Assembly: GCA_009927255.1 (NCBI GenBank)
Contig: RFNJ01000096.1
Span: 1 to 41,085, forward strand
Source: Pseudomonadota bacterium
GTDB taxonomy: Bacteria; Pseudomonadota; Alphaproteobacteria; UBA2136; UBA6156
DNA: 41,085 bases
Direction of reading: 5' to 3'
The notes under the pieces were generated by a model. It made no database searches and was not told the DNA's origin. It was given only the letters and a program-made list of their open reading frames with translations. The position numbers and the translations under genes are program-made. Below are positions 3 to 17,079 of this stretch, one piece after another. Position 1 is the first letter of the stretch. The number at the start of each line of letters is the position of its first letter.

Positions 3-617
3 TTGGGCCGAGACCCCGGCGTCACCTTGGCCGCCCACGATTACTTGGTGAACGTCTCCGGCGTGCTTAAGTCAGCGGGCCTCATCGAAGAACAAAAGTT
101 CCAAGTTTTGGCCACTTCCGCCAGCCGCGATGGCCTCACCGGCCTCTACGACAAATCCACTTTCGCCCGCCTGCTCTCCGATGAACTGGCCCGCCAAGCT
201 CGTTTCGGCCGTCCGGTCACGCTGGTGTTGGTGGATATCGACCACTTTAAAAAACTGAACGACACCTTCGGCCACGCTGATGGCGACGTGGTGCTTGCCC
301 AAGTGGCCCAACTCATCGCCGCCCAAGCCCGCAGTACCGATAGCTGCGGGCGGTTTGGTGGCGAAGAATTCGGCGTCATTTTGCCCGAAGTAGACGCCCA
401 AGCAGGGAATTTATTGGCCGAACGGATCCGCGCCAACGTGGAAAGATATTTCACCACCACGCCCTACAAAGTCACCGTCAGCATTGGTGTTGCCAACGGC
501 ACACCGGGAGTCAAGGCCGAAGACCTCGTCCGCGCCGCCGACGCCGCGCTGTATCAAGCCAAACACCAAGGCCGCAACCGCGTTTGTTTAGCCACCGAAA
601 TCGTCACCACGATTTAA
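3..617 (+). CDS. GGDEF-domain protein (diguanylate cyclase), 5' end probably truncated by the window
   Basis: LTGLYDKSTFARLL..., VDIDHFKKLNDTFGHADGD, GGEEF signature (RFGGEEFGVILPE), and RxxD (RSTD) five residues upstream of GGEEF, as in a c-di-GMP I-site. Confidence 0.9.
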   Translation: MGRDPGVTLAAHDYLVNVSGVLKSAGLIEEQKFQVLATSASRDGLTGLYDKSTFARLLSDELARQARFGRPVTLVLVDIDHFKKLNDTFGHADGDVVLAQVAQLIAAQARSTDSCGRFGGEEFGVILPEVDAQAGNLLAERIRANVERYFTTTPYKVTVSIGVANGTPGVKAEDLVRAADAALYQAKHQGRNRVCLATEIVTTI

Positions 618-621
618 GGTA

Positions 622-650
622 TTGACAATTCAACCTGTTCGCCATATTTA
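622..650 (+). promoter_or_regulatory. Putative sigma70-type promoter for an intergenic RNA: TTGACA (622-627), 17-nt spacer, TATTTA (645-650)
   Basis: Perfect -35 consensus, 17-nt spacing and a 4/6 -10 box, just after the GGDEF stop codon; no plus-strand CDS follows before recJ (minus). Confidence 0.5.
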
Positions 651-656
651 GGCTAC

Positions 657-875
657 TCATTACTTAACACGCCGCATCATAAATTAGCCCATTTCCCAGT
701 TCCCCAGCTACCAGTGATGGGCTGACGGAGGAGTCGGAAAGCCCCTTAATAGCTGCTAACTGCGGGCCATCACTGGTTGGCGCTTCCCCCGCAAGCAGCA
801 GCTTTCCCCACAATGGTTACAGAGGGTGCAAACTCTGCAACCACCCCCCACAGCGCACAGCTGTGGGGGCTCTTT
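657..875 (+). ncRNA. Candidate structured small RNA with an H-type pseudoknot and its own terminator
   Basis: Stem A CCAGTGATGG(711-720)/CCATCACTGG(767-776); stem B AGCTGCT(751-757)+TGCGGG(761-766) with CCCGCA(788-793)+AGCAGCT(797-803); order A5'-B5'-A3'-B3' is a pseudoknot. Also hairpin TGGTT-A-CAGAG/CTCTG-C-AACCA (814-843), and a terminator hairpin. Confidence 0.5.
845..875 (+). terminator. Rho-independent-like terminator hairpin
   Basis: CCCCCACAGC (845-854) / GCTGTGGGGG (860-869) followed by CTCTTT; may also serve recJ from the other strand. Confidence 0.6.
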
Positions 876-878
876 CAT

Positions 879-2699
879 TTACACCACCGCATCCTTCACC
901 TGCACATCCAACAACGCCTTGCCATTAAACACCCGCGGCCGCAGCGTTGCCGCCAAAGTTAGCGCCCGCCCACCCGATTGCCCCAGCACCGCCCCCAGCG
1001 GCGTATTCATCGCCCCAAAGCAAATCGCATCCACCCCACCACCACCCACACCGGCCAGCCGCAGGCGCAAGTGTTCTTGGGTCGCCCCCACCGGCTTGGC
1101 ATGCACAATCCGCGCTTGCTCCAAGGCCAAAACTGGCTCGGGATTACCATTGCCAAACGGCCCCAACTGCTGCAGCGCCTGCCCCATGTCCGGCGTCAAG
1201 TTCGCCACACTCGCCCGCGCCGCAATCCCCAACTGCGGCGCCAACCGCACCGCCAGCGGAATATCCGCCATAGTACTATCTTGGGCCAACTGTGCCGCCA
1301 AAGCCTGCGCCAACAATCGCCCAAACGCCGCCAAGTTGGCAGGCTGTAAGGTAATCCCCGCCGCCATCGCATGCCCGCCACCACTCAGCAGCACATCGCC
1401 GCACGCCCGCACTGCCGCACCCAAATCCAGGCCAACCACACTGCGTCCCGACCCCTTCAACACTCCATGCTCATCCACCCCCAGCACAAAGGTCGGGCGG
1501 TTAAACCGCTCCTTCACCCGCGCCGCCACAATCCCTGCCACCCCGGGGTGCCAGCCTTGGCCATGCAGCACCAGCGCCAATGTTGCATCGGTAAATTGCC
1601 CTTCGGCTTGCGCCAATGCCTCGCGCAAAACCTCTTTCTCAATCGCCTGCCGCTGGGTGTTTAATTCCTGAAGCCGCTGAGCGAAAACCAACGCCTGCGC
1701 ATCATCATCAGTCAGCAATAAATCCATTGCGCTGCGCGCACTCTCCACCCGCCCCGCCGCATTCAGCCGTGGCGCCAAGCCAAAGGCCAGACCGATGGCG
1801 CTCACATCATCCCGCACCCCCGCTACGCTGGCCAACGCCGCCAAGCCGCGATGCTGCCACGTCGCCAACTGCTGTAAACCTTTGGCCACCAGCACGCGGT
1901 TATAGTCCACCAACGGCATCACATCCGCCACCGTGGCCAGCGCCACCATTCCCAGCAACGGGGTGAGTGAAGGCTCTACCCGCTCCTTAAAAAACCCACT
2001 CTCGCGCAAATGCCGATTCAGCGCCATCAGCACATAAAAAATCACCCCGCTGGCACACAGGTTCTGTAACGGGCTGGCACAGTCGGCACGCTGCGGATTC
2101 ACAATCGCCAACGCCGGCGGCAAGCTCGCCCCCGGCTGGTGGTGGTCGGTCACAATCACTTCCATCCCCAAGGCTTGGGCTTCAGCCAAAGCTTCATGCG
2201 CGGTGGTGCCGGTATCTACCGTTACCAGCAGCCGCACGCCTTGCCCATGCAATACGCGCATGGCGGCTGGGTTGGGCCCATACCCCTCACTCAACCGCTC
2301 CGGAATATAAACAATCGGCTCCGCCCCAAATCCACGCAAATACCGCACCAAAATCGCACACGCACAGGTGCCATCCACATCATAATCACCAAAAATCCCC
2401 ACCACTTCACGCGCCACAATCGCCTGCGCCAAGCGTCGCACCGCCACATCAAGGTCTTTCAGCGTAAACGGCGGAGGCAATTGCTCCAACCGCGGGTTCA
2501 AAAACACCGTCGCTCGCTCCGCCAAACCAAACCCCCGCGCCGCCAAAATCTGGGCAATCAACGGCGACATCCCCGTGCTCTGCGCCAAAGCCGCCGCCTG
2601 CCGAGAATTCCCCTCCGCCCAAACCCACCGCTGCCCAAGCACTGAAAGCTTATCCCCGCCCAAAGGCGCCAAAACCGCTGCCGCATTGCCCATATTCAT
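879..2699 (-). CDS. recJ: Single-stranded-DNA-specific exonuclease RecJ
   Basis: DHH-family motifs GIFGDYDVDGTCACAIL, VTVDTGTTAHEAL, VTDHHQPG, and C-terminal SGGGHAMAAGITL; full-length 606 aa. Confidence 0.95.
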   Translation of the reverse strand: MNMGNAAAVLAPLGGDKLSVLGQRWVWAEGNSRQAAALAQSTGMSPLIAQILAARGFGLAERATVFLNPRLEQLPPPFTLKDLDVAVRRLAQAIVAREVVGIFGDYDVDGTCACAILVRYLRGFGAEPIVYIPERLSEGYGPNPAAMRVLHGQGVRLLVTVDTGTTAHEALAEAQALGMEVIVTDHHQPGASLPPALAIVNPQRADCASPLQNLCASGVIFYVLMALNRHLRESGFFKERVEPSLTPLLGMVALATVADVMPLVDYNRVLVAKGLQQLATWQHRGLAALASVAGVRDDVSAIGLAFGLAPRLNAAGRVESARSAMDLLLTDDDAQALVFAQRLQELNTQRQAIEKEVLREALAQAEGQFTDATLALVLHGQGWHPGVAGIVAARVKERFNRPTFVLGVDEHGVLKGSGRSVVGLDLGAAVRACGDVLLSGGGHAMAAGITLQPANLAAFGRLLAQALAAQLAQDSTMADIPLAVRLAPQLGIAARASVANLTPDMGQALQQLGPFGNGNPEPVLALEQARIVHAKPVGATQEHLRLRLAGVGGGGVDAICFGAMNTPLGAVLGQSGGRALTLAATLRPRVFNGKALLDVQVKDAVV

Positions 2700-16930: not shown

Positions 16931-17079
16931 TACAAAAACACCTTGACACCCTCCGCCCCCCCCAGCTACAAGCACTCACCACTCTGCTTCAGCACCGTGG
17001 TATGCCTCACGCAGGCATCATGCTCACCGGATTTCAGCGGTAAGCCCCAAAGCATTCAAATATAAAGGGGAAAATAGGC

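What the first reader, a model, noticed from the sequence alone, without database searches (positions are those of the whole stretch)
622..875. Free-standing intergenic RNA gene candidate with a long-stem H-type pseudoknot
Seen directly: a TTGACA-N17-TATTTA promoter just after the GGDEF stop, then about 215 nt without a convincing ORF, containing interleaved perfect stems: A5' 711-720, B5' 751-766, A3' 767-776, B3' 788-803. Stem A is 10 bp; stem B is 7+6 bp around a 3x3 internal loop. Stem A also encloses a small hairpin (GGGCTGAC..GTC..AGCCC, 719-744) whose GGAGGA loop is Shine-Dalgarno-like; its first two nucleotides overlap stem A. A further 5+5 bp hairpin (814-843) and a 10-bp GC terminator follow. 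The downstream gene recJ is on the opposite strand, so this is not an obvious 5' leader. The layout (own promoter, compact fold, terminator) suggests a trans-acting RNA. I could not match it to tmRNA, RNase P, SRP or 6S RNA by eye.
Basis: partly seen in the sequence, partly recalled or inferred. Interest (0 to 1): 0.75.

Follow-up and report, generated by a model that had tools for sequence, protein, structure and literature searches.

The report
Orphan pseudoknotted small RNA candidate
Between two genes of an uncultured alphaproteobacterium lies a stretch that looks like a small RNA gene with its own promoter, an unusually strong interleaved fold and a terminator, but no relative of it could be found, so whether it is a working regulator remains unproven.

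Summary
A TTGACA-N17-TATTTA promoter-like site is followed by interleaved stems A (11 bp, 710-720/767-777) and B (7+6 bp, 751-766/788-803), a GGAGGA-loop hairpin, a 5+5 bp hairpin and a 10-bp terminator. The pseudoknot pair of stems is stronger than in any of 70,000 dinucleotide shuffles and is among the two strongest in the 41-kb window (the other is its own reverse complement). Nested folding of the core is not unusual (z -0.5 to -1.4), and energy does not decide between pseudoknot and nested folds. Rfam gives nothing, and the genome's tmRNA lies elsewhere. Covariance models found no homologue in the 17 other held genomes of the order or in several hundred sampled across the class. Relatives with the same GGDEF-recJ junction lack the element, so covariation cannot be tested. 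One new feature: four UUCCC motifs within 120 nt (22 in 41 kb on this strand), two predicted accessible. The best reading is a lineage-specific small RNA, free-standing or released from the GGDEF 3' UTR, that pairs through UUCCC seeds with ribosome-binding sites. The fold is moderately supported; the function is inference.

The parts
3..617 (+). GGDEF diguanylate cyclase gene, 5' end cut by the contig start; upstream neighbour on the same strand
   Evidence: Pfam PF00990 E 8.2e-43
622..650 (+). promoter-like site TTGACA-N17-TATTTA
   Evidence: 0.06% of shuffles of the intergenic stretch
657..709 (+). predicted 5' tail, C/U-rich, with UUCCC motifs at 693 and 700; can alternatively pair with 715-724 or with L1
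710..720 (+). stem A 5' arm (11 bp with 767-777)
719..744 (+). hairpin with GGAGGA loop inside pseudoknot loop 1; its first two bases compete with stem A
751..766 (+). stem B 5' arm (7+6 bp around a 3x3 internal loop)
767..777 (+). stem A 3' arm, abutting B5' with no spacer
778..787 (+). pseudoknot loop 3, holding most of the third UUCCC (784-788)
788..803 (+). stem B 3' arm
804..813 (+). single-stranded linker with the fourth UUCCC (804-808), the most accessible one (unpaired probability 0.98 with the pseudoknot imposed)
814..843 (+). 5+5 bp hairpin
   Evidence: z -3.7 for 810-843
845..875 (+). intrinsic terminator, 10-bp stem, weak U-tract
879..2699 (-). recJ, convergent neighbour

Best explanation
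A lineage-specific small RNA of about 215 nt, transcribed from the promoter at 622-650 (and probably also present as the 3' end of the GGDEF mRNA) and ended at the terminator at 845-869. Its body is a pseudoknot in which stems A and B can stack end to end. It would act in trans: exposed C/U-rich UUCCC(C) segments, above all the linker 804-808 and loop 3, would pair with G-rich ribosome-binding sites (GGGGAA-type) and block translation, with Hfq as likely helper. Shown here: the sequence anatomy, the statistical excess of the two stems and of UUCCC, absence from known families, absence from relatives, and presence of hfq in the genome. Inferred: transcription, the pseudoknot in solution, trans action, and any target.
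For: Promoter-like site, stems, hairpins and terminator in the right order. Pseudoknot stem score not reached in 70,000 shuffles. Four UUCCC within 693-808 against a mean of 0.36 in shuffles, and the densest place on either strand of the window. hfq is present. No coding signal. Redundant UCCC motifs as the pairing sites of an sRNA are demonstrated for LhrC of Listeria (PMC4132741), and a UUUCCUCCCU core for the alphaproteobacterial SisA-D sRNAs (PMC12559287).
Against: No homologue and hence no covariation. Nested folding of the core is ordinary. Two of the four UUCCC motifs, 693 and 700, are predicted partly paired with loop 1 (unpaired probability 0.37 and 0.22). The terminator U-tract is weak and there is no expression evidence. 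Stem strength is symmetric between strands.
Confidence: 0.38

Rival explanations
1. It is only the 3' UTR and terminator of the GGDEF mRNA: an mRNA tail that stabilises or ends the transcript, with no independent RNA function.
For: Same strand, starts right at the GGDEF stop, and the only visible terminator of that gene in G000 lies at 845-869. In relatives the GGDEF gene is followed by other hairpins and variable sequence.
Against: A full TTGACA-N17 promoter-like site sits after the stop codon. A terminator needs no 27-pair interleaved fold.
Confidence: 0.27
2. It is non-functional inserted or decayed DNA at a variable junction, and the stems are a chance or DNA-level inverted-repeat feature.
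For: The GGDEF-recJ gap differs in every relative: 32, 188, 407, 529 and 658 nt with different content. There are no homologues.
Against: 0 of 70,000 shuffles reach the two-stem score. Promoter, fold and terminator are in order, and UUCCC motifs cluster.
Confidence: 0.2
3. It is a protein- or RNA-titrating sponge: the GGAGGA-loop hairpin captures CsrA, or a C/U-rich sRNA as the G/A-rich loop of Caulobacter CrfA does.
For: GGA-rich hairpin loop at 727-732 and a csrA gene in the genome. CrfA sequesters SisA-D through a G/A-rich stem loop (PMC12559287).
Against: Only one such hairpin; known CsrA sponges of the CsrB type carry many (established knowledge). The GGAGGA loop is itself predicted to pair with the 5' tail (unpaired probability 0.16).
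Confidence: 0.09
4. It is a diverged member of a known housekeeping RNA or ribozyme class.
For: No 6S RNA was detected in the order by RF00013, so a diverged one must exist somewhere or be absent; length about 215 nt and a free-standing layout would suit.
Against: No Rfam family matches 600-900 even at E 10 except two irrelevant minus-strand hits. tmRNA is at G000:C104. Not found in relatives, which a housekeeping RNA would be.
Confidence: 0.04

Closest known systems
LhrC sRNA family of Listeria (multi-UCCC sRNA; PMC4132741)
   Same: Several redundant UCCC-containing sites in loops and single-stranded stretches as the presumed mRNA-pairing sites.
   Different: Unrelated phylum and sequence; LhrC has no described long pseudoknot; targets here unknown.
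SisA-D / alpha-R8 sRNAs and the CrfA sponge of Caulobacter (PMC12559287)
   Same: Same class of bacteria; C/U-rich anti-Shine-Dalgarno-like seed (UUUCCUCCCU) in SisA-D and a G/A-rich loop in CrfA; both kinds of segment occur in this one RNA.
   Different: No Rfam match to any family; seed here is UUCCC rather than UUUCCUCCCU; different architecture.
H-type pseudoknot RNAs in general
   Same: Order A5'-B5'-A3'-B3' with abutting stems.
   Different: Stems of 11 and 13 bp and a 30-nt loop 1 containing its own hairpin are much larger than in typical H-type pseudoknots (general knowledge, not tested).

Membership tests
tmRNA (RF00023 / RF01849) | match to the covariance model, tRNA-like domain and tag reading frame | tested here: not met
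   No match in the window; the genome's tmRNA is at G000:C104
6S RNA (RF00013) | match to the covariance model | tested here: not met
   No match in 600-900 at E 10 nor in the order
Any Rfam 15 family (RNase P, SRP, riboswitches, ribozymes, described sRNAs) | score at or above the gathering threshold | tested here: not met
   0 matches in the window; weak irrelevant ones at E 4.8 and 6.1
Trans-encoded bacterial sRNA | own promoter and intrinsic terminator around a non-coding stretch | tested here: met
   (sequence level only)
Trans-encoded bacterial sRNA | expressed discrete transcript | not testable with these tools
   no RNA data
Trans-encoded bacterial sRNA | conserved sequence or structure in relatives | tested here: not met
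   no homologue in the order or in the class sample
H-type pseudoknot RNA | two interleaved stems beyond chance | tested here: met
   0 of 70,000 shuffles
H-type pseudoknot RNA | compensatory change in both stems | tested here: inconclusive
   no second sequence found, so no covariation can be counted
UCCC-motif sRNA (LhrC-like mode of action) | several accessible UCCC seeds | tested here: inconclusive
   four UUCCC, but only 784 (0.70) and 804 (0.98) predicted accessible
CsrB-type CsrA sponge | many GGA-loop hairpins | tested here: not met
   one GGAGGA hairpin, although csrA is present

The most novel reading that the evidence does not exclude
A new class of small RNA in which a long, coaxially stacked pseudoknot presents C-rich seeds and a Shine-Dalgarno-like loop, with the 5' tail switching between pairing with the GGAGGA loop and being free.
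Probability: 0.12. Interest if true: 0.55.

Novelty: new member of a known kind. Interest (0 to 1): 0.3.

Why it matters
If real, it would be an orphan regulatory RNA in a little-studied alphaproteobacterial order with small genomes, and an example of an sRNA whose body is a long pseudoknot rather than simple hairpins. It would also show how a small RNA gene can arise at a junction whose content turns over between genera. As it stands it is a candidate, not a discovery.

Tried and rejected
Rfam at gathering and at E 10: nothing relevant. blastn of the region against 60 relatives, phages and plasmids: only itself. Exact pattern of the GGAGGA hairpin in viral contigs: none. Two single-sequence covariance models, stem-B and stem-A versions, on the order and one on the class: of the weak hits, those whose contexts I read lie inside genes (a nuoJ-like gene in L112, a prophage primase-like gene in L115, a pilus-assembly-like gene in L118). 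L111, L113, L114, L116, L119 and L120 were judged on alignment and score only. tmRNA and 6S identities rejected. Small ORFs in the stretch have no Pfam match. A 7-nt match between the accessible UUUCCCC segment ending at 808 and the GGGGAAA before rpoB was seen but is post hoc and not counted as evidence.

Full report
Observation. Stem B's 5' arm abuts stem A's 3' arm, so the two could stack end to end. Loop 3 is 10 nt and spans an 11-bp stem, which I judge feasible; that is inference, not modelling.

Chance. I scored the best interleaved pair of stems (stacking energies, at most 3 nt at the junction) in 657-813. The observed score is -50.1; none of 10,000 plus 60,000 dinucleotide shuffles reaches it, the best being -49.5. 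In 2,048 sliding windows over both strands of the window only the reverse complement of the same place scores higher, and the next unrelated place scores -45.5. So the pair of stems is unusual, but it does not by itself say which strand is the RNA. The site was picked by a reader out of 41 kb, which costs some of this significance. Nested folding tells a weaker story: z is -0.55 for 657-806 and -1.44 for 657-843, and the z of -3.7 for 655-875 owes much to the 3' hairpins. The nested MFE of 657-875 is -82.7; stems A and B plus independently folded loops and 3' hairpins come to about -90 before any pseudoknot penalty (from the terms). With a usual penalty the two are close, so energy does not decide.

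Identity. No Rfam family reaches its threshold anywhere in the window, and a permissive search of 600-900 gives only two irrelevant weak hits. The genome, G000, is a 1.23-Mb assembly in 180 contigs of an alphaproteobacterium: named recJ relatives are alphaproteobacterial, best about 44% identical. Its tmRNA is at C104, so the element is not tmRNA. Small frames in the stretch have no Pfam match.

Relatives. blastn finds only the window itself among 61 genomes. Covariance models carrying stem B (R1) and stem A (R2) find only the window in the 18 genomes of the order. R1 finds one weak hit besides the window in 387 class genomes (L116, E 0.007, 20 bits), with most of the inner part of stem B absent in the alignment. 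The weak hits whose contexts I read lie inside genes. The GGDEF-recJ adjacency itself is kept in several relatives, but the gap is 32 to 658 nt with other content, for example in G001, the only other genome of the genus held. The element is therefore specific to this species as far as these collections show, and covariation cannot be counted.

An added feature. UUCCC occurs at 693, 700, 784 and 804, four of the 22 on this strand of 41 kb, and no other 189-nt stretch on either strand has more than two apart from those overlapping this one; shuffles average 0.36. With the pseudoknot imposed, 804-808 is open (0.98) and 784-788 mostly so (0.70), but 693 and 700 are predicted to pair with loop 1 (0.37, 0.22), which also hides the GGAGGA loop (0.16). 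UCCC-type seeds that bind Shine-Dalgarno regions are proven for LhrC (PMC4132741), and in alphaproteobacteria a UUUCCUCCCU core serves in SisA-D, which is sponged by the G/A-rich loop of CrfA (PMC12559287). hfq and csrA are both present in G000.

Mechanism and verdict. The best-supported reading is a small RNA, separate or released from the GGDEF 3' UTR, that pairs through UUCCC seeds with ribosome-binding sites. The anatomy is shown; expression, fold in solution, trans action and targets are inferred. The main rivals are a plain 3' UTR with terminator and non-functional variable sequence. In G000 no terminator is visible between the GGDEF stop and 845, which keeps the 3' UTR rival alive. As a comparison for the promoter, the tmRNA of the same genome has TTGTAG-N17-TATGTA 8 nt before its 5' end (my reading), a similar -10 form, but the 5' end of tmRNA is normally made by processing, so this is weak support.

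Noticed in passing
G000:C104:7787-8213 (L107); also L101, L106: The order to which this genome belongs has a standard one-piece tmRNA (RF00023 over cut-off in 12 of 18 genomes, none with permuted alpha_tmRNA over cut-off), whereas 87 of 96 genomes drawn across the class carry the permuted two-piece form over cut-off. This is a retained or regained ancestral form in one order and may be worth a study of its own. The tag in G000 is long: AKAKSNVIAFRPRTSAGAFAMAA.
   Followed up: partly
window 618-878; L003-L007: The GGDEF-recJ junction is variable between relatives: gaps of 188, 529, 407, 658 and 32 nt in L003-L007 with different content, at least some of it other small genes.
   Followed up: partly
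window 17063-17070 versus 802-808: The rpoB ribosome-binding region (AAAGGGGAAAATAGGCATG) holds GGGGAAA, the complement of the accessible UUUCCCC of the candidate RNA; a possible target, seen post hoc.
   Followed up: no
window 17086, - strand: A TTGACA-N16-TATATT promoter-like site runs antisense at the very start of rpoB.
   Followed up: no
whole order (18 genomes): No 6S RNA is detected by RF00013 at E 0.1 in any of the 18 genomes, though the same search rings in Caulobacter.
   Followed up: no
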